Origin: Paludibaculum fermentans
GTDB lineage: Bacteria; Acidobacteriota; Terriglobia; Bryobacterales; Bryobacteraceae
Assembly (NCBI RefSeq): GCF_015277775.1
Contig: NZ_CP063849.1
Location: forward strand, 5,099,501 to 5,163,500
Length of the DNA stretch: 64,000 bases
Direction: 5' to 3'
Shown piece after piece: positions 8,398-59,162 of this stretch. The position numbers and the translations under genes are program-made. Numbering within the stretch: position 1 is the first letter of the stretch; each line of letters opens with the position of its first letter. The notes beneath the pieces are model-generated. The model was not told where the DNA came from. It was given only the letters and a program-made list of their open reading frames with translations, and made no database searches.

Positions 8398-11300
8398 ATG
8401 ACAAGTTTAAGAGGTCGTAATCTCTTAATTTTGACGCTGGCATGCCTTGTTTTGCTGCCATCCACAGCGTCCGCGCAGGTCACGGCGGGAACGATCCTAG
8501 GCGCAGTCCGGGATGGGAGCGGCGCCGCGGTACCTGGAGCGACGGTCGTCGTGAAAGAGGTATCGAAGGGCACCAGTGTTGAGTATCAGACAAATGAGGA
8601 TGGCGCCTATACGGCACCATTCCTTTCCCCTGGCACATACACAGTGAACGTGCAGAAGGCGGGTTTCAAGCCACAGGCGACGCCGCCCTTCGAACTGCAG
8701 GTGGATCAACGGGCGCGCATGGATTTCACGCTGAATGTGGGTGACGTCACAGCCACGGTGGAAGTGACCGCGGCGGCTCCGCTGGTGAAGTCGGACAGCG
8801 CCGAGTTAGGACAAGTCATCACGGAGCGCCCCATCCGGGAGCTGCCGTTAAATGGCCGCAACTTCGCGCAACTGGTGTATCTGGCACCCAACGTGACGCC
8901 GGGACAGCAGGGTGAAAACCTCTCGGGCGCGAGCTCTTTCAATCCGCGCGGCGCCTCGAACTTCAATGCACTGGGCAGCCAGGCGAACATGAACGCGTGG
9001 CTGATCGACGGTATCGACAATAACGAATACACGTTCAATACGGTGATCCTGCAGCCGTCGATTGAATCCGTCCGCGAGTTCAAAGTACTGACGGGCAGCT
9101 TCTCGGCGGAGTTTGGCCGGGGCGCCGGCGTGGTGTCGGTGTCGTCGAAATCCGGAACGAACGAACTGCACGGCAATGCCTTCGAGTTCCTGCGGAACGA
9201 TGTCCTGGATGCCCGCAATTACTTCAATCCGAAGTCGCAGCTGAAGCCGCCTTACCGGCGCAACCAGTATGGGGTGGCGGCGGGCGGCCCCATTGTCCTG
9301 CCGAAGATCTATGACGGTAAGAACCGAAGCTTCTTCTACATGGATTACTTCGGGATGAAGGAGCGCAAGGGCCTGACGTTTGTGAACACGGTACCGACAG
9401 CGGCAAATCGCACAGGCGACTTCAGCGGCTTCACGGACACGAGCGGCAACCTCATCCGGATCTATGATCCGCTGACGACCAGGCTGAATCCGGCCTACGA
9501 TTCCACCAAGCCGGTGAGCACGACAAATCCGCAGTTCCTGCGCGACGCGTTTGCCGGAAACGTCATTCCTTCGGCGCGGATCAATCCGGTGAGCGCCAAC
9601 GTGGCGAGCATATTCCCGCTGCCGAATGGCTCGGGCAATTTCAATAACTACACGTCCAGTATTCCCCGCACTGTGGACGACGACGGCTTCAACGTCCGTG
9701 TGGACCACCAGATCACGGACAAGGACAATTTCTTCGCGCGGTATAGCTATGAGACCTACCGCCTGAGTGCTCCGCAGGGGCAGGCGAACTGCTGCCTACC
9801 GACACCAGCGGCCGCGGCCAGCAAGTTTGAGCTTGGACCATACGTGGCCGGCCTGCAGGTGACGGACCTCACTACGCAGGGCATGGCGATCAACGAGACG
9901 CACGTGTTCCGGCCGAATATCGTGAACGAGTTCCGCGGCGGGTTCGCGAAGACCAATCCGTTTACGCGGCAGTCTGACTTCGGACGCAACGCGGCGACGT
10001 CGCTGGGCATCACCGGTGTGAATGTGAGTTCCTACAGCTCGGGCATTCCGAACATCAACATCACCGACTTCACCGGCCTCAGCGGCGGCCCGTCGTTCCT
10101 GCCGGCCAATCCGCGGGAGACGCACTGGCAGGCGGAAGACGGAGTTTCCTGGACTCTCGGCCACCACCAGACCAAGTTCGGCTACCGCTATGTCCGGCGC
10201 ATGACGTCGACCTATACGGGACCTTCCGGGGGCGGCCCGCGCGGCGACATGACGTTTGGAAAGAACTTCACGAACGATCCTGTTACCAATACGCAGGGCA
10301 CCGGGCTAGCCACCATGCTGGTGGGCTACATCAGCGGCGGATCAGGGCGCAGTATCCTGCTGGAGCCCTACTATGCAACGGCGCAGGATCACAGCTTCTA
10401 TTTCCAGGACGACTGGCGGATCAACTCGAGGCTGACCATCAACATGGGGTTGCGGTATGACGTCTTCGTGCCCGACGTGGAGATCCGGAACCGGCTGGTG
10501 AACTTCGACTTCACAAATTTGAAGCTGGCCTATGCAGGTGAGGATGGCATCTCCACCGCCGTCGGAAAGGTGACGCGGAAGGGCAACATTGGACCACGCA
10601 TCGGCGTGGCGTACAACCTGGGCGGCGGGAAGACCGTCATCCGGGCGGGCTTCGGACGCACGTACTTCCCTGTAAATCCGTCAGGCTCCAACATGCTGGG
10701 CGAGCAGGTGCCGTACACCATCTCACAGGCGCCGTTCGGCAACATTGCAACTAATCCGGTGGATTACACGGTGATCCCCACCATCGCCAAACCGTTCCCG
10801 GCGATCACCGTGGTCAAGCCCAAGACCACGGCAGAGCTGAATGCAGCGAATCCTGTCGTGCTGGGCCACGGCTTTGCGAATGAGACACCCTCCATGAACA
10901 CGTTTACGTTCAACATCGAGCGGCAGTTGACCAGCACGATGATGGCGGAAATGGCTTATGCCGGCAGCGTCGGCTCGCACATCACGTTCGGCTACAACGC
11001 GAACGAGATCCAGCCGGGCACCGGTTCGAACGCCTCGCGCCGGCTGCTGCAGCCGCTCTCGAACGTGGCCACGATCAGCATGTTCGACCCGCGCAACTCC
11101 TCCTCTTACAACGGAGTGTCCGGCAAGCTGGAGAAGCATTTCTCCCACGGGCTCCAGTTCCTGGCAGCGTATACGTATGCCAAGAGCCTGGACTTCGGCG
11201 GGTCGGCGGCCAGCGGCGGCGGGTCGGTGGGTGGCCCCCAGACCATCACCAATATCCGGGCCGGCCACGGTCCTTCGGGCTTCGACGTCAAGCACCGGCT

Positions 11301-52790: not shown

Positions 52791-52998
52791 AATCCTGAAA
52801 ACGGTGACGAAACAGGACACCTTACCGGAGCCTGGCGATTCCCTGTTCGATTCCGGATTGCTCGACTCGTTCGCATTGCCGGACCTGGTGAGCGCCCTGG
52901 AACAGGAGTTCTCCATTCAGATCCCCGACGCGGACCTGAACCCTCGCAAGTTCGACTCAATCGAGCGGATCGAAGAATACCTCGACTCTAGGAATTGA
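52765..52998 (+). CDS. DltC-like acyl carrier protein
   Basis: 77-residue four-helix carrier protein. The phosphopantetheine site is Ser35 in GLLDSF, the same hexapeptide I know from DltC (D-alanyl carrier) rather than the GxDSL of fatty-acid ACP. The sequence after it (LVSALEQEFSIQIPDADLNPRKFDSIERI) also has the DltC pattern. AGGAG lies nine bases upstream of the ATG; the gene overlaps the end of the second SGNH gene by 26 bp. It probably carries the acyl group handed to the MBOAT protein. No DltA-like ligase is in the window. Confidence 0.88.
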   Translation: MDRRSKLIEILKTVTKQDTLPEPGDSLFDSGLLDSFALPDLVSALEQEFSIQIPDADLNPRKFDSIERIEEYLDSRN

Positions 52999-53006
52999 CT
53001 GGGGCA

Positions 53007-53939
53007 ATGGCATTTATCAAGGAATTCGGAAGCTGGCTGCCCGAGCGGGTGGTAACCAGCCAGGAGGCTGGCAGCTGGGTTGGCGCAGACTCCACCTGGG
53101 TGGTCAATGTCTCAGGGATTGAAGAGCGGCGGTTCGCCGTGGACGAAGATACCGTGGCCGACCTGGCCGCGCGGGCGGGCCGGGATTGCCTGGAACGCGC
53201 GGGCGTAGCTCCGGGCGACCTCGGAATGGTGATGGTGGCCAGCGGTTCGGCGGAGCGGTCGTTCCCCGGGCCGGCCTGCGTCGCGGCGCAGAAGATGGGC
53301 GCAGCCGGGGTTCCGGCCGTCGACCTGCCGATGGCGAGCGCGGGTTCACTGTTCGGCCTCTCGATGGCGGCGCGCCTTACCTCGCAGATTGGTCCGATTC
53401 TCGTGATCGGCGCCGAGAAGATGTCGCGGATTGTAGCGCGCGAGCCGCAGGAGCGCGGCGTGGCGGTACTGTTTGGCGACGGCGCGGGCGCCTGCCTGAT
53501 TACAGCCGAAAAGGGCCGGGCCGAGATCGTCGATTCCGTTTTGGGCACCGATGGCTCGTATTCCGAGGATTTGACGCTGGAAAACGGCATGCCCATAAAA
53601 ATGAATGGGCGCAGCGTGATTCTGCAGGCTTCCCGCAAGATTCCGGCCGCGATCCGGTCGCTGCTGGACCGCTATAAGATTCAGCCGCCGGATGTGCTGG
53701 CGTTCCTGATGCACCAGGCCAACCAGAACCTCATCGACCGGGTGGCCAGCACGCTGGGCGTGCCCAGCGCGAAGTTCTTTTCGAACATCCGCAAGTATGG
53801 GAACACCTCGTCGGCTTCGATGTTGATTGCGGCCTGCGAGTGGAGCCAGGACAACGACTTCGAGCCCGGCTTGCCCGTGGTCTTCGCAGCCTTCGGCGCC
53901 GGCTTCAACTGGGGCGCCCTGCTGGTTCGCGGCGTTTAG
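53007..53939 (+). CDS. 3-oxoacyl-ACP synthase III-like protein with Ser in place of catalytic Cys
   Basis: 310 residues, FabH/KASIII thiolase fold. His236 (FLMHQANQNLIDR) and Asn266 (KYGNTSSAS) of the Cys-His-Asn triad are present, but the Cys position, in a DLPMASAGSLFGL segment where FabH has AACAGF, is Ser111. Some KASIII-like enzymes such as DpsC use Ser at this place for acyl transfer or starter selection. Inferred role: move an acyl group from CoA to the neighbouring carrier protein. ATG at 53007 is preferred over TTG at 52995, which overlaps the carrier's stop. Confidence 0.88.
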   Translation: MAFIKEFGSWLPERVVTSQEAGSWVGADSTWVVNVSGIEERRFAVDEDTVADLAARAGRDCLERAGVAPGDLGMVMVASGSAERSFPGPACVAAQKMGAAGVPAVDLPMASAGSLFGLSMAARLTSQIGPILVIGAEKMSRIVAREPQERGVAVLFGDGAGACLITAEKGRAEIVDSVLGTDGSYSEDLTLENGMPIKMNGRSVILQASRKIPAAIRSLLDRYKIQPPDVLAFLMHQANQNLIDRVASTLGVPSAKFFSNIRKYGNTSSASMLIAACEWSQDNDFEPGLPVVFAAFGAGFNWGALLVRGV

Positions 53940-53978: not shown

Positions 53979-54518
53979 ATGGCGGAGGAGACGCAAGGGC
54001 TGGTCGAAGCCGCGCAGCGCGGCGATCGTACCGCCTTTGGTTCGCTCTACGAACGGTATGGCCGCATGGTGCATGCCGTCCTGCTGGCGCGCGTCCATCG
54101 CCAGGAGACCGACGACCTGGTCCACGAGGTCTTCCTGCAGGCATGGCGGGCCCTGCCTTCCCTGCGGGAGCCGGCCGCCTTTCCCGGCTGGCTGGCGCGC
54201 ATTGCACGAAACAAAGCCATGGATCACTACCGGCGCGGCCATGAGGAGCAGGAACTGCCCCTGACCCTGGAGGGCGGCGGGCGTCCGGGCGAAGATGGAC
54301 AGTACATCCTCGCCATGGTACGGAGCCTGCCGGAAGCTTACAGGGAAACCCTGCTCATGCGCCTGGTGGAAGGGATGACCGGGCCCGAGATTTCGGTGCT
54401 GACGGGGCTGACGCATGAATCGGTGCGGGTGAATCTGTCGCGCGGCATGAAGATGCTGCGCGAGAAACTGGCTCCAGGATCCGGTGAACCGGGCCCCGGG
54501 GCGGAGAGACAGTCATGA
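53979..54518 (+). CDS. ECF-type RNA polymerase sigma factor
   Basis: 179 residues. Region 2 (YERYGRMVHAVLLARV ... DDLVHEVFLQAWRALPSL ... ARIARNKAMDHYRR) and region 4 (LPEAYRETLLMRLVEGMTGPEISVLTGLTHESVRVNLSRGMKMLRE) are both canonical. It overlaps the FecR-like membrane protein gene by four bases (ATGA), the standard sigma/anti-sigma layout. Confidence 0.93.
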   Translation: MAEETQGLVEAAQRGDRTAFGSLYERYGRMVHAVLLARVHRQETDDLVHEVFLQAWRALPSLREPAAFPGWLARIARNKAMDHYRRGHEEQELPLTLEGGGRPGEDGQYILAMVRSLPEAYRETLLMRLVEGMTGPEISVLTGLTHESVRVNLSRGMKMLREKLAPGSGEPGPGAERQS

Positions 54519-55513
54519 GCGACTGGCACGACGACGAACTCGAGCGGATGCAGGAGGCTTTGCGGCCGCTGCGCTACCAGTCCCGGCGGGCGGAGTTGGA
54601 GGCACGCCTGGAGCCGCGTGGCCCCGTCCGCATGCCTGCCTGGAAACACTATGCCATCGCCGCCGCCGTGCTCGTCTCCGTTGGCGTTTCCGCCGCCGCG
54701 TATGTCTATCAACATTCACCGGGTTGGGCCATCGCCAGTACCGAGGGAGAGGTAAGCCTGAACTGGGGTTCGCGCTTCACGCGGGTATTGCGGTCCGGGG
54801 AAGGACTCGAGACCGCCGCGGGCCAGGTGCAGCTTCGCGTGGGCAGCATTGGGGCTCTCACCATCGGGAAGAACTCGCGGATCCGGCTGGTGGAGGCGTC
54901 GCCCAATCAGCAGACGGTCTCGCTGGAGCATGGTGAGATCCGGGCCAGCATTCTGGCTCCGCCACGCCAGTTCCAGGTATTGACCCCGGCGGCGAAGGCG
55001 GTGGACCTGGGGTGCGCGTACACGCTCAAGGTCGATCGCGACGGGAACGGACACCTGGAAGTGACCATGGGCTGGGTGAGCTTCGAGGACCGCGGCCGAC
55101 AGTCGTTTATCCCGGTCGGGGCGGCGTGCCGGACCCGCAAGGGGCTGGGACCGGGCACTCCCTACTACCTGGACGCCGAACCCGGTTTGATCAACGCCCT
55201 GGAGCAGGTGGACTTCTCCGCACAGCCCGCGGAACGGCTGGCGGCCCGGAAAACCCTGCTGCCCCTGGCGCGCCGCCGGGATGCTTTGACGCTTTGGCAC
55301 CTGCTTTCGCGAGGGACGCCAGATGAGCGGGGCATGACCGTGGACCGTCTGACCGCCCTGGCTCCGCTGCCGCCGGGCGTGACCCGCGAAGCCATACTCA
55401 GGCTGGAGCCCGACGCGCTGCAGCGGCTGTGGGACGGCATGAACCTGGGCCCCGGGGCGTGGTGGAAGCTGTGGGGCTTTACGCCGCCGCCCGCTCCTGT
55501 TGTGCGTCGCTAA
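54515..55513 (+). CDS. FecR-like membrane protein, probable anti-sigma partner
   Basis: 332 residues. A short cytoplasmic N-terminus (about 1-42) precedes one membrane helix (about 45-65) and a periplasmic FecR-like domain (about 70-200, VGSIGALTIGKNSRIRLVEA ... TVSLEHGEIRASIL ... KAVDLGCAYTLKVDRDGNG). The C-terminal about 100 residues are helical. The canonical zinc-binding anti-sigma His-Cys motif is absent, so sigma inhibition would be by another mechanism. Coupled to the ECF gene. Confidence 0.83.
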   Translation: MSDWHDDELERMQEALRPLRYQSRRAELEARLEPRGPVRMPAWKHYAIAAAVLVSVGVSAAAYVYQHSPGWAIASTEGEVSLNWGSRFTRVLRSGEGLETAAGQVQLRVGSIGALTIGKNSRIRLVEASPNQQTVSLEHGEIRASILAPPRQFQVLTPAAKAVDLGCAYTLKVDRDGNGHLEVTMGWVSFEDRGRQSFIPVGAACRTRKGLGPGTPYYLDAEPGLINALEQVDFSAQPAERLAARKTLLPLARRRDALTLWHLLSRGTPDERGMTVDRLTALAPLPPGVTREAILRLEPDALQRLWDGMNLGPGAWWKLWGFTPPPAPVVRR

Positions 55514-55581: not shown

Positions 55582-55908
55582 ATGGGATGCGGCGGTTCGA
55601 TGCCACCGAGACAAGAAGATTTGACGGGTAAGCGCACCGTGATGTGCGTGAAATTCGGGAAAGAGATGGTCGGCCTGGACGAGGCGCCTTTCGACGGGCA
55701 TCCTCTCGGCCAGCGGATCTACGAGAACGTCTCGAAAGAAGCCTGGCGTATGTGGGTGGAGCACATGAAGATGCTCATGAACGAGTACCGCCTGAATCTG
55801 GGCACCAAGGAAGCGCAGGATTTCCTGCTGGCGCAGATGGAGCAGTACTTCTTCGGCGAAGGCGCTCAGCTTCCGCCGGATTTCACCCCTCAAAAATCAA
55901 AGAGCTGA
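55582..55908 (+). CDS. YggX-like Fe(II)-trafficking / oxidative damage protection protein
   Basis: 108 residues. The core (about 22-105) follows E. coli YggX: MCVKFGKEMVGLD with the conserved Cys (iron or redox site), then LGQRIYENVSKEAWRMW and the NEYRLNL segment, ending PPDFTP. A 20-residue N-terminal extension MGCGGSMPPRQ adds one more Cys. AGGAG nine bases before the ATG supports the longer form. Family role: protect Fe-S clusters and limit Fenton damage. Confidence 0.85.
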   Translation: MGCGGSMPPRQEDLTGKRTVMCVKFGKEMVGLDEAPFDGHPLGQRIYENVSKEAWRMWVEHMKMLMNEYRLNLGTKEAQDFLLAQMEQYFFGEGAQLPPDFTPQKSKS

Positions 55909-57168
55909 GCGCTGTGGCTTTGCCATAACCGGCAGGGCCGTGGCGAATTGGAATTGCAGGCGGCTGTGGGCCTGGCGGAGCGAGGATTCGACCTCCGCCG
56001 GGCCCGGCCCCTTCGCAAATAGAAAACCCAGATAGCTGCTGCCTTCCGGCAACTGCTGAAACCGCTGCCCGGGCTGGGCTGTGATCTCCACCCCCTCCAT
56101 TCCTGCCACTGCCAACGCCGCTTCCACGCCCGAACACCCTTCATAGAGACCATTGCGCGGAATGGGGATCATCATGACTCCGGACGCGGGTCCGTCGAGC
56201 GCAAGTGCTTCCAATGGCTGGCCGAGCGCATGGCGCAGAATCACCTGCTCCAGCGGAGTGCCGCCGTTGAAAGTGAGGACGCGCGCGCATAGGCCGCCGA
56301 TGGGCCGAGCCGCGACCTCGAGCACCCAGGCTCCGCTATCGTTCCAACGCAGTTCCGAATGGATGGGCCCGTCGGTCAGCCCTAAAGCCGCCGCCGCGCT
56401 TTGAATCGCCTCGTGCATGGCGGCCTGGGCTTCCCGAGGCTCGCGGGAGGGCGTGACGTAGAGGGTCTCTTCGAAGAAGGGGCCTTCCAGCGGATCGGGC
56501 TTGTCGAAGATGGCCAGCGTCTGGAGTTTGCCGCGGGTCATCAGCCCTTCCAAGGCGAACTCGCGGCCGGGGATGTACTCCTCGATCTGAATAAAGCCGA
56601 GGGCGGGATGGCGATGGCGGAGCAACTCCGGCGCATTCAGCAAATTGCGAATTCTCTCGAAGGCGGCGACGAATTCGTCTGGATTATTGGCGCGGATTAC
56701 GCCGCGGCTGCCGGAGAGTCCGAGTGGTTTGAGGACGCAGGGCCAGGGCGCCTGGAGGCAGGCGTCGGCCGGAGCCGTCGCGAGGGGGACGCGATAGAAG
56801 GTGGGCACGGGCAGGCCGGCGGCGGCGAACCGCTCGCGAGCGAGGTACTTGTTGCCGGCGGCCTCGACGGCGTCCGGCGGATGGAAGGGCAGAGACAGGC
56901 GGGCCGCGATGTGCGCAGCGGCCACGGCTGGCAGGTCGCCCACAGCCACAATGCCTGCGATGCCAGTAATTTCGCGCGCCAGGCGCTCGGCGGAGTCGGC
57001 TGGTTGATGGAACTTCAGGGGGAAGGCGTGGTCGCCCCAGGGATCGTCGAGGGAGCCGCAGCGATCGGTGGCCAGAACGGCCTCAAGACCCAACCGGGTC
57101 GCGGCTTCCTGGAAGCTGCGAGTCTGGTAGCCGAGCTTGGAGGCGACGATGAGGATCTTCACCAACAT
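55897..57168 (-). CDS. ATP-grasp domain protein (carboxylate-amine ligase-like)
   Basis: 423 residues. An N-terminal Rossmann-like pre-ATP-grasp domain (MLVKILIVASKLGYQTR) leads to ATP-grasp with GNKYLARERFAAAGLPVP, PCVLKPLGLSGSRGV (lysine and glycine loop), IQIEEYIPGREFALEG and metal-binding LRWNDSGAWVLEVAARPIGG. The last about 90 residues form an appended domain. It resembles L-amino-acid/dipeptide ligases and carbamoyl-phosphate-like enzymes; substrate unknown. ATG at 57168 or GTG at 57162 are both possible starts. Its 3' end overlaps the converging YggX-like gene by 12 bp. Confidence 0.8.
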   Translation of the reverse strand: MLVKILIVASKLGYQTRSFQEAATRLGLEAVLATDRCGSLDDPWGDHAFPLKFHQPADSAERLAREITGIAGIVAVGDLPAVAAAHIAARLSLPFHPPDAVEAAGNKYLARERFAAAGLPVPTFYRVPLATAPADACLQAPWPCVLKPLGLSGSRGVIRANNPDEFVAAFERIRNLLNAPELLRHRHPALGFIQIEEYIPGREFALEGLMTRGKLQTLAIFDKPDPLEGPFFEETLYVTPSREPREAQAAMHEAIQSAAAALGLTDGPIHSELRWNDSGAWVLEVAARPIGGLCARVLTFNGGTPLEQVILRHALGQPLEALALDGPASGVMMIPIPRNGLYEGCSGVEAALAVAGMEGVEITAQPGQRFQQLPEGSSYLGFLFAKGPGPAEVESSLRQAHSRLQFQFATALPVMAKPQRSAL

Positions 57169-57209
57169 TAATTCTAGCTGGTGAAAAATGGGTGCGTTAT
57201 TGTAGATCC

Positions 57210-57803
57210 ATGAAGGGCCTTTTCTGTTTATTTCTCGCACTGGCGCCGCTGCAGGCGCAGTCGTGGTCAGTGGGCATTCCGGACTCCTTGATTACCTATC
57301 TCGCGTTGACGAGCAGCCAGGCAGGTCAGCTCGCGCAGAATAACAATGCCTACTCAGAGCTGGTATCCCGGAAGAATTCTCGTATTTACGAGGTGCAGAG
57401 CGAAATCGCTACAGAGACGGCCAAGGACCCTATCGATCCCAGCGCGCTAGGCGTGCGGTATATGGAGATCGAGCTGATTTGCCGCGACATCAAGAAGGCT
57501 GGAGACGACCTGCGCAAGAACAACACAGCATTGCTCACGGAGGCGCAGAAGGTCAAACTGGCGGCGCTGGAAGAGGCGATGAAGCTGGCTCCGGTGTACA
57601 CGGCGGCTCAGAACGCGAACCTGCTTGCGGGGATACGGAGCGGGGATTTCTCGGCGATCATCGGCATACCGTCCGCTGCGGTCTTCTACCAAAAATGGCC
57701 TGCTGCCTGCAACACGCCATCCGCTGTTTCCATCTACGACCCGGTGGCCATGCCAACACCGCGGCCGTGCCGGGATGCTTCCTGCGTCGACAAACAGAAG
57801 TAG
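57210..57803 (+). CDS. Exported helical hypothetical protein
   Basis: 197 residues. Signal peptide about 1-16. The mature part begins with a short ITYLALTSSQAGQL stretch reminiscent of LTxxQ repeats in Spy/CpxP-like periplasmic proteins, followed by helices rich in Lys and Glu (CRDIKKAGDDLRKNN). Five further Cys in the C-terminus (AACNT ... RPCRDASCVDK) may form disulfides. A TATTGT box ends six bases before the ATG and no Shine-Dalgarno is seen. It converges on the radical SAM gene, leaving only three bases between the stops. Confidence 0.7.
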   Translation: MKGLFCLFLALAPLQAQSWSVGIPDSLITYLALTSSQAGQLAQNNNAYSELVSRKNSRIYEVQSEIATETAKDPIDPSALGVRYMEIELICRDIKKAGDDLRKNNTALLTEAQKVKLAALEEAMKLAPVYTAAQNANLLAGIRSGDFSAIIGIPSAAVFYQKWPAACNTPSAVSIYDPVAMPTPRPCRDASCVDKQK

Positions 57804-57806
57804 AAA

Positions 57807-59162
57807 TTAGAGAAGAGCAACCTGCTCCTCAGTGGGCTCCGCTCAGCAGTACCAGGGTTCGTCCAGATAGGGCACGGCGGCGCGCGGGATGAGGTCGAAG
57901 TTCTCCGGCGGAGCTGCACCGTGGACCAGTTGCCAGATCTGGCGGAAGATCTCGTGCGGTGGATTGGCTGCTCTCTGACGGGACGCCACCAGATCGAAGA
58001 CGCCGCGGGCCAGTTCGTCCACATCCGGATCCGGATGGTGCCAGCGGTGGAGGAGTCCGGCCGGATCGAAACCTTCCAACAGCGGTTCCACCTCCGGCAG
58101 ACTCAGGATCAAGGAGTGCGCCGGGATCAGCAGCCGCAGGGCGAGTTGAATGGGCGCCACGTGGCTCGCCAGTCCGGTTTCCAGCAGCAGCGCCAGGAGG
58201 TCGCGATAGCCCTCCAATGTCGTCCAGGGGGTGAACGGCACGAAGGTCGGGTTCAGATGCAGCCCGGCTTCGCGGGCCAGAACCAGGGCGGCCAGGAAAT
58301 CGGCGCGGGTGTGGCGCTTGTCGAGCTTCTCCAGCACCAGATCCTCAGTGGATTCCACGGCCGTCGTGATCAATACGCAGCCGGTGCGAGCCAGGGCAGG
58401 CAACAGCGCACGATGTTTGAGCAGGTGCTCCACCTTGATGGTGGCGTCGTAGGTCAGTTCCGGCCATTCCTGGTGCAGCGCTTCCACAATCCGCATTGCG
58501 TGTGTGGGGCCGTTGAGGAAGTCGGGATCGCCGAAGGTGATGTGCCGGGCTCCGGCGCTGGCCTGCCGGCGAATGTCCTCCAGGACGATTTCGGCGGGGA
58601 CGACGCGGAAGACGCCGTTGTAGACCGGGACGACCGGGCAGTGCCGGCAGAGGTGCTTGCAGCCGCGGCTGGCCTCGGTGTAGCCCACGGTGCGGCGCTC
58701 GCCATTCACGTGGAGATGGGCGTAACGCTCGAGCTTGGGCAGGGTCGTGCGATCGGGCACGGCAAACGCCTGCCGTTCCAACTGGATGAGTGCGCCGGCC
58801 AGGCGTCCCTCTACCGCCTCCACCAGGCCTGATTCGAACTCACCGCCGATGATGTCGTGGACTCCGAGCTCGCGGAGGTGCTCGGCATTCAGCGGCGCGT
58901 AGAGGCCATAGGCCACCAAACGAACCGAAGGGTTGGCGTCGCGCACGCGCTCGAGCACCGGCAGGGCCATGCGAGTGGCCGTGTGCATGGGCAGGTGGAA
59001 GGCAATGCAATCCGCCTCTCGAACCGCCTTTGCCGGCAGGAGGCCGACCGTCAGATCGGCGCAGGTGACTTCGTGCCCGCGCGCCCGCAGCCAGGCCGCA
59101 GGCGAGGCCAGCCCGAAAGGTTGCCGGCCGAGTTCGTAAGTGGAGACAAGAACGACGCGCAA
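57807..59162 (-). CDS. CUAEP-tail radical SAM selenoprotein (UGA read as Sec)
   Basis: 451 residues if UGA at 57845-57843 is decoded as selenocysteine (U440); 439 if it is a stop. The N-terminal about 130 residues form a Rossmann-like, cobalamin-domain-type region without a visible DxHxxG motif. The radical SAM core has C168, C172 and C175 (GCKHLCRHC), then ITFGDPDFLNGP and the TIM-barrel helices. The C-terminus reads YLDEPWYC-U-AEPTEEQVALL, matching the CUAEP/CCAEP-tail radical SAM family, where U replaces the second Cys of the CC form. A hairpin with GGU loop 12 nt after the UGA acts as candidate SECIS. Readthrough ends at TAA 57809-57807. Substrate unknown; such tails probably bind the substrate or an auxiliary cluster. 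Confidence 0.85.
57812..57845 (-). promoter_or_regulatory. Candidate bacterial SECIS element with Sec UGA codon
   Basis: UGA at 57845-57843, then 12 nt, then GAGGAGCA-GGU-UGCUCUUC (57830-57812): eight pairs (one G-U) closing a GGU loop. In E. coli fdhF the SelB-recognised upper stem also starts about 11 nt after UGA and presents GCAGGUCUGC at its tip; here the tip is GCAGGUUGC. The element lies within the readthrough coding region. Confidence 0.75.

What the first reader, a model, noticed from the sequence alone, without database searches (positions are those of the whole stretch)
57807..59162. Radical SAM gene is a selenoprotein: UGA inside a CUAEP tail
The apparent C-terminus ...EPWYC is followed by UGA, then Ala-Glu-Pro and eight more codons to a TAA. 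CUAEP is the tail of a radical SAM family (CUAEP/CCAEP-tail, as I recall the name) where U is selenocysteine and the sister form has CC. Readthrough adds exactly this signature and stops three bases before the converging gene. Standard gene callers would truncate it. It implies a Sec decoding system in the genome.
Basis: partly seen in the sequence, partly recalled or inferred. Interest (0 to 1): 0.88.

Follow-up and report, generated by a model that had tools for sequence, protein, structure and literature searches.

The report
Selenoprotein radical SAM with dipeptide-ligase partner
This soil-bacterium gene almost certainly reads an internal stop codon as selenocysteine, making a known but biochemically uncharacterised radical SAM selenoprotein, and it occurs together with a peptide-bond-forming type of ligase in every family-positive genome checked, which gives a concrete lead to what it makes.

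Summary
Observation confirmed. On the minus strand (59162-57807) a radical SAM gene runs to ...EPWYC, then UGA (57845-57843), then AEPTEEQVALL and TAA. It matches NCBIfam NF040546 (CUAEP/CCAEP-tail radical SAM (seleno)protein) at 674 bits against a cut-off of 500. The genome has tRNA-Sec (anticodon TCA), SelA, SelB and a SelD with its own in-frame UGA. Of 127 resolved homologues, 105 have TGA at that codon, 22 TGC, none TAA or TAG. A hairpin 15-33 nt after the UGA's U is kept by compensatory changes in Sec forms and decayed in Cys forms: a bacterial SECIS. Selenocysteine reading is near certain, but the family is already named, so this is a new member of a known kind. New here, and not found in the papers searched: the gene has an apparently obligate partner, an ATP-grasp L-amino-acid ligase (window 57168-55897), found at high score in 49 of 49 family-positive genomes and 0 of 31 family-negative Acidobacteriota. 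The nearest characterised relative of the radical SAM protein is ArsL (arsinothricin), whose clusters also often carry an ATP-grasp gene. Best guess: the pair makes a SAM-derived unusual amino acid and joins it to another amino acid. The chemistry is untested.

The parts
57807..59162 (-). CUAEP-tail radical SAM selenoprotein gene, 451 residues, TTG start, TAA stop at 57809-57807
   Evidence: translation with TGA=U; NF040546 673.9 bits, cut-off 500
57843..57845 (-). UGA codon read as selenocysteine (residue 440)
   Evidence: aligned codon TGA 105, TGC 22, no other among 127 homologues
57812..57830 (-). SECIS-type hairpin GAGGAGCA-GGU-UGCUCUUC, 15-33 nt after the U of UGA, inside the codons of the tail
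   Evidence: compensatory changes; decayed in Cys forms
58815..59153 (-). B12-binding-like N-terminal domain (residues 4-116)
   Evidence: PF02310 34.9 bits, gathering 32.1
58236..58670 (-). Radical SAM domain (residues 165-309)
   Evidence: PF04055 51.4 bits
58638..58661 (-). CxxxCxxC motif (C168, C172, C175) for the [4Fe-4S] cluster
   Evidence: invariant in 49 aligned members
55897..57168 (-). ATP-grasp L-amino-acid-ligase-like gene, the apparently obligate partner (ORF open from 57240; likely ATG start at 57168)
   Evidence: PF13535 109 bits and PF18603 LAL_C2 52 bits; co-occurrence 49/49 vs 0/31; BL00235 ligase 242 bits to the family profile
57192..57803 (+). Hypothetical gene lying between the two partners in this lineage; converges on the radical SAM stop
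   Evidence: no Pfam match; partners directly adjacent in relatives L111 and L115
55633..55890 (+). YggX-type Fe(2+)-trafficking protein domain, frequent neighbour of the ligase gene but not an obligate partner
   Evidence: PF04362 113 bits; neighbour in many loci; co-occurrence not obligate

Best explanation
The gene encodes a radical SAM selenoprotein of family NF040546. SelB, carrying Sec-tRNA-Sec, reads the UGA at 57845-57843 as selenocysteine with the help of the SECIS hairpin coded by the tail itself, giving a C-terminal Cys-Sec pair in CUAEP (Sec decoding: about 0.97). The enzyme works in one pathway with the neighbouring ATP-grasp L-amino-acid ligase (about 0.9). Inferred chemistry (about 0.35): like its relative ArsL, the radical SAM enzyme cleaves SAM and adds a SAM-derived carbon unit, perhaps 3-amino-3-carboxypropyl, to an acceptor held or activated by the soft Cys-Sec pair, making an unusual amino acid, which the ligase then joins to another amino acid. 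The acceptor is unknown. Shown by computation: UGA, hairpin, Sec machinery, partner co-occurrence. Inferred: radical chemistry, role of the Cys-Sec pair, dipeptide product. The confidence below is for decoding plus partnership.
For: Family 673.9 bits against a cut-off of 500. tRNA-Sec 68.8 bits, confirmed as tRNA-SeC(tca); SelB 358 bits; SelA 490; SelD 353 with one in-frame TGA. Codon TGA 105 / TGC 22 / other 0. Hairpin: 89.8% paired, covariation 0.604 against 0.229 +/- 0.034 in shuffles and at most 0.272 when slid; Sec forms keep 6.1 of 7 pairs, Cys forms 2.9, Mann-Whitney p 3e-13. All but two of 103 Sec tails have at least 8 residues after AEP, room for the hairpin, and one of those two (UAEPLGEPGALV) is a counting artefact; Cys tails shrink to 3-4. 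SelB in 36 of 39 Sec-form genomes, two of the three misses 75% complete. Partner profile at 380 bits or more in 49/49 family-positive genomes, at most 83 bits in 31 negatives; overlaps of 1 or 4 nt in several loci. Nearest solved relative of the partner is L-amino acid ligase BL00235. [quoted passage not shown] ArsL loci in Priestia, Alicyclobacillus and Pantoea carry an ATP-grasp gene.
Against: No experiment. No arsenic genes lie near CUAEP loci, so the acceptor need not be arsenite. ArsL is only about 33% identical and lacks the AEP tail. ArsL-cluster ligases score 90-137 bits with the partner profile, below BL00235 at 242, so they are not its closest relatives. The fold is nearest to AprD4 and OxsB, which do other chemistry. 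Five Cys-form genomes keep SelB, so SelB presence alone does not predict the form.
Confidence: 0.9

Rival explanations
1. Selenoprotein, but the Cys-Sec tail serves redox: it re-reduces an active-site thiol or the cluster, or quenches an intermediate, and the enzyme does ordinary 5'-deoxyadenosyl chemistry (dehydration, epimerisation, methylation) on a substrate that the ligase then conjugates.
For: Closest folds are AprD4 (Z 28.2), OxsB (Z 25.9) and MgmA (Z 25.7); a B12-binding-like domain is present; Fe-S or iron-handling neighbours NfuA and YggX are frequent; Cys and Sec interchange at least 10 times on the tree, as expected of a redox residue.
Against: Closest characterised family by sequence is ArsL, with a vicinal-Cys tail; NfuA and YggX are not obligate.
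Confidence: 0.4
2. The UGA is a plain stop; AEP and the hairpin are chance or a terminator.
For: The window hairpin is not more stable than shuffles (z -0.62); the protein up to Cys439 already holds the complete radical SAM domain.
Against: 105 TGA, 22 TGC, 0 TAA/TAG among homologues; compensatory pairing; AEP (once SEP) coded after it in all of these; full Sec machinery.
Confidence: 0.01
3. An arsinothricin-type arsenic pathway: the acceptor is arsenite and the product is an organoarsenical.
For: ArsL is the nearest characterised family; vicinal Cys/Sec could bind As(III) (established knowledge of vicinal thiols).
Against: ArsL score 263 is below its cut-off of 450; no convincing ArsR, ArsM, ArsB/ACR or aquaporin relatives near 131 CUAEP loci; the RCCLKC tail is absent.
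Confidence: 0.08

Closest known systems
NCBIfam NF040546, CUAEP/CCAEP-tail radical SAM (seleno)protein
   Same: Score 673.9 over the cut-off of 500, full length, same tail. RefSeq already uses the name.
   Different: Nothing in kind: this is a member. The SECIS covariation, tail-length logic and ligase partner are added here; no paper in the library searched mentions CUAEP or CCAEP, and a 2026 review of prokaryotic selenoproteins does not mention NF040546.
ArsL, RCCLKC-tail radical SAM protein of arsinothricin biosynthesis (NF040542)
   Same: Radical SAM with similar N-terminal domain, CxxxCxxC, C-terminal vicinal Cys pair, ATP-grasp gene in several clusters.
   Different: 263.5 bits is below its cut-off of 450; no AEP tail, no Sec, shorter tail region; arsenic genes beside ArsL but not beside CUAEP.
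L-amino acid ligase BL00235 and BacD (ATP-grasp), for the partner gene
   Same: Profile of the partner matches 3vot at 242 bits over nearly full length and BacD at about 103 bits; LAL_C2 domain present.
   Different: The partner forms its own tight family tied to the CUAEP gene; substrate unknown.
Other radical SAM selenoproteins (TIGR04167, TrsS NF045646)
   Same: Radical SAM proteins with Sec (PMC13188914).
   Different: Different families and Sec motifs; neither was among the NCBIfam matches of this protein.

Membership tests
NF040546 CUAEP/CCAEP-tail radical SAM (seleno)protein | Score over the curated cut-off of 500 bits | tested here: met
   673.9 bits
NF040546 CUAEP/CCAEP-tail radical SAM (seleno)protein | C-terminal C(U/C)AEP | tested here: met
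   CUAEP; C439 C440 A441 E442 P443 invariant in 49 aligned members, with TGA read as C
NF040546 CUAEP/CCAEP-tail radical SAM (seleno)protein | CxxxCxxC cluster motif | tested here: met
   C168, C172, C175
Bacterial selenoprotein | In-frame UGA aligned with Cys in homologues | tested here: met
   105 TGA, 22 TGC
Bacterial selenoprotein | SECIS hairpin just downstream of UGA | tested here: met
   Sec against Cys forms
Bacterial selenoprotein | SelA, SelB, SelC, SelD in genome | tested here: met
Bacterial selenoprotein | Selenium in the purified protein | not testable with these tools
   needs 75Se or mass spectrometry
NF040542 ArsL | Score over the cut-off of 450 bits | tested here: not met
   263.5 bits
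NF040542 ArsL | RCCLKC tail | tested here: not met
   tail is CUAEPTEEQVALL
NF040542 ArsL | Arsenic genes nearby | tested here: not met
   no convincing tblastn match near 131 loci
ATP-grasp L-amino acid ligase (partner gene) | ATP-grasp_4 and LAL_C2 domains over gathering | tested here: met
   109.1 and 52.3 bits
ATP-grasp L-amino acid ligase (partner gene) | Peptide-bond formation | not testable with these tools
   enzyme assay needed
Cobalamin-dependent radical SAM | B12-binding fold | tested here: met
   PF02310 34.9 bits over 32.1; fold match to OxsB
Cobalamin-dependent radical SAM | Bound cobalamin | not testable with these tools
   AprD4, the closest fold, is to my recollection not a cobalamin enzyme; a DxHxxG motif is not seen in the N-terminal domain by eye

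The most novel reading that the evidence does not exclude
The CUAEP radical SAM protein and its ATP-grasp partner are the two-gene core of an undescribed pathway, widespread in soil Acidobacteriota and scattered in other phyla, in which a cysteine-selenocysteine pair presents a heteroatom acceptor for C-heteroatom bond formation from SAM and the product is capped as a dipeptide-like metabolite.
Probability: 0.3. Interest if true: 0.8.

Novelty: new member of a known kind. Interest (0 to 1): 0.5.

Why it matters
The Sec call itself is textbook and the family is named, so that part is ordinary. What matters is that an orphan selenoprotein family now has a strict genetic partner with a predictable activity, so its function can be tested with two genes in one host. 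If the product is a SAM-derived heteroatom amino acid in a dipeptide, it would be a second ArsL-like chemistry and a rare case of Sec serving radical SAM catalysis. It also shows that public annotation can still truncate these proteins at the UGA.

Tried and rejected
Folding energy of the single hairpin: not significant, so comparative evidence was used. Arsenic context: no convincing match of ArsR, ArsM, ArsB/ACR or aquaporin near CUAEP loci. YggX as third partner: rejected, present in 20 of 31 family-negative genomes and missing from many positives. NfuA as partner: only near a minority of loci (19 of 100 with long flanks). TonB-type outer-membrane protein upstream: seen at the window and its nearest relative L108, otherwise weak. 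Formate dehydrogenase as the reason for Sec in this genome: its FDH-like matches have no in-frame TGA. Papers: no hit for CUAEP or CCAEP; Haft 2023 and 2025 are not held, so the partner may be mentioned there unseen. Whether the tail docks at the active site could not be measured because model coordinates are not given.

Full report
What is there. The finding lies on the minus strand. From TTG at 59162 the frame runs to Cys439 (TGC, 57848-57846), UGA at 57845-57843, Ala-Glu-Pro, eight more codons (TEEQVALL) and TAA at 57809-57807. The extended protein is 451 residues and scores 673.9 bits with NCBIfam NF040546, 'CUAEP/CCAEP-tail radical SAM (seleno)protein', cut-off 500, matching positions 1-467 of 468. 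Pfam finds a B12-binding-like and a Radical SAM domain.

Can the cell decode it? Yes. The window belongs to a 9.53 Mb genome; its nearest relatives in the tree are Bryobacterales and other Acidobacteriota MAGs, Paludibaculum among them. It holds tRNA-Sec (68.8 bits; ARAGORN calls it tRNA-SeC, anticodon TCA), SelB (358 bits), SelA (490 bits, about 20 kb from tRNA-Sec) and SelD (353 bits), the last with an in-frame TGA of its own.

Is the UGA conserved? The family was sampled in 297 genomes of the phylum, 48 of which have it over the cut-off, and by a scan of 84,980 species genomes, where 518 stretches encode relatives and the best 80 were kept. In 127 homologues with a resolved tail the codon is TGA in 105, TGC in 22, and never TAA or TAG. 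One apparent exception, G001, carries UGA-AEP in a shifted frame, as by an assembly frameshift. Sec and Cys forms interchange at least 10 times on the tree.

Is there a SECIS? In the window GAGGAGCA-GGU-UGCUCUUC sits 15-33 nt after the U of UGA. Its energy alone is unremarkable. Across 28 Sec forms 89.8% of pair cells are standard pairs, 46 cells have changed on both sides (shuffles 15.6 +/- 4.5), and covariation is 0.604 against 0.229 +/- 0.034 in shuffles and at most 0.272 for slid versions. The 28 were chosen from 38 Sec forms and leave out a few that pair poorly (L085, L091, L092 and L096, the first two with 2 and 1 of 8 pairs); over all 103 Sec forms the mean is 6.1 of 7 pairs, against 2.9 in 22 Cys forms (p 3e-13). 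All but two of the 103 Sec tails have at least eight residues after AEP, enough to code the hairpin; of the two, one is a counting artefact (UAEPLGEPGALV) and one (L092, USEPL) ends early at a UAG. Cys tails go down to CCAEPLPV. So, by inference, the residues after AEP are there largely for the RNA. SelB is over cut-off in 36 of 39 Sec-form genomes (two of the three misses are 75% complete), 5 of 8 Cys-form and 21 of 31 family-negative genomes; Fisher p is 0.013 for Sec against negative.

Partner. In 61 of 100 loci with long flanks an ATP-grasp gene lies near the radical SAM gene, on the same strand with overlaps of 1 or 4 nt in several cases, on the opposite strand in others. In the window it is at 57168-55897, separated by a plus-strand gene; in relatives L111 and L115 the two are 15 and 30 nt apart. 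A profile of the partner (A2) finds it at 380 bits or more in 49 of 49 family-positive genomes, including about fifteen where the genes are unlinked or on separate contigs, and nothing above 83 bits in 31 family-negative genomes. A2 was built from genes of some of these genomes, which match by construction, but the absence from negatives and the unlinked cases are not circular. The negative set is not balanced by family, so shared descent may inflate the contrast. The nearest solved structure by sequence is L-amino acid ligase BL00235 (3vot, 242 bits), then BacD. From memory BL00235 favours methionine-like first amino acids; not tested.

What it may do. AlphaFold2 with 49 sequences gave pLDDT 93.4. 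Best folds are AprD4 (Z 28.2), OxsB (25.9) and MgmA (25.7). By sequence the nearest characterised family is ArsL (263 bits), shown in cells to make hydroxyarsinothricin from As(III) and predicted to transfer 3-amino-3-carboxypropyl from SAM (PMC8552651); a later review describes that transfer as catalysed by a radical SAM enzyme (PMC12159101). Both families end in a vicinal Cys-Cys or Cys-Sec pair. Annotated ArsL loci in Priestia, Alicyclobacillus and Pantoea also carry an ATP-grasp gene, though these ligases (90-137 bits) are not the closest relatives of the partner. No arsenic genes were found near CUAEP loci. I therefore propose, at about 0.35, an ArsL-like transfer to an unknown acceptor followed by ligation, with redox use of the Sec as the main rival.

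Known or new. The family and its selenoprotein status are curated at NCBI, and RefSeq uses the name. I found no paper in the library naming it, and a 2026 review lists other radical SAM selenoproteins but not NF040546; two Haft papers could not be read. The obligate ligase partner may be new. In T. roseum the RefSeq protein of this family ends exactly at the UGA.

Noticed in passing
L103 (G000:C1:9301580-9302485): SelD of this genome has an in-frame TGA itself, so it is probably also a selenoprotein.
   Followed up: no
L188:7935-9420: Thermomicrobium roseum megaplasmid CUAEP protein WP_012643191.1 is annotated to end at the UGA; the next codons give AEPLEDPSGPV and a hairpin GGACCC-GUC-GGGUCC (read by eye).
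   Followed up: partly
L189, L205, L206, L207: ArsL (RCCLKC-tail) loci on Priestia, Alicyclobacillus and Pantoea plasmids all hold an ATP-grasp gene, and ArsM or ArsN1 in three of the four, suggesting that arsinothricin may be conjugated to another amino acid.
   Followed up: partly
L077, L078, L082, L083, L088, L089, L093, L094, upstream of the radical SAM gene: A peptide-transporter-like (POT, by eye) or sodium-symporter-like (SSS, by eye) gene often lies just upstream of the radical SAM gene in some lineages.
   Followed up: partly
L054, L055, L057, L059-L063, L067, L069 and L092, upstream: In the EPWFC/ESWFC clade a NifU-domain (NfuA-like) gene lies about 70-200 nt upstream of the radical SAM gene.
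   Followed up: partly
L092, end of the radical SAM gene (about 9340-9420): One homologue reads WFC-UGA-Ser-Glu-Pro-Leu then UAG, with a poor hairpin; possibly a decayed gene or a sequencing error.
   Followed up: no
L210, L211 (own genome): Formate-dehydrogenase-like matches in the own genome have no in-frame TGA, so the usual Sec user does not explain the Sec system here.
   Followed up: partly
window 53979-55513: ECF-type sigma factor followed by a FecR-domain gene, next to a KAS III-like gene at 52995-53939; not part of the finding.
   Followed up: no
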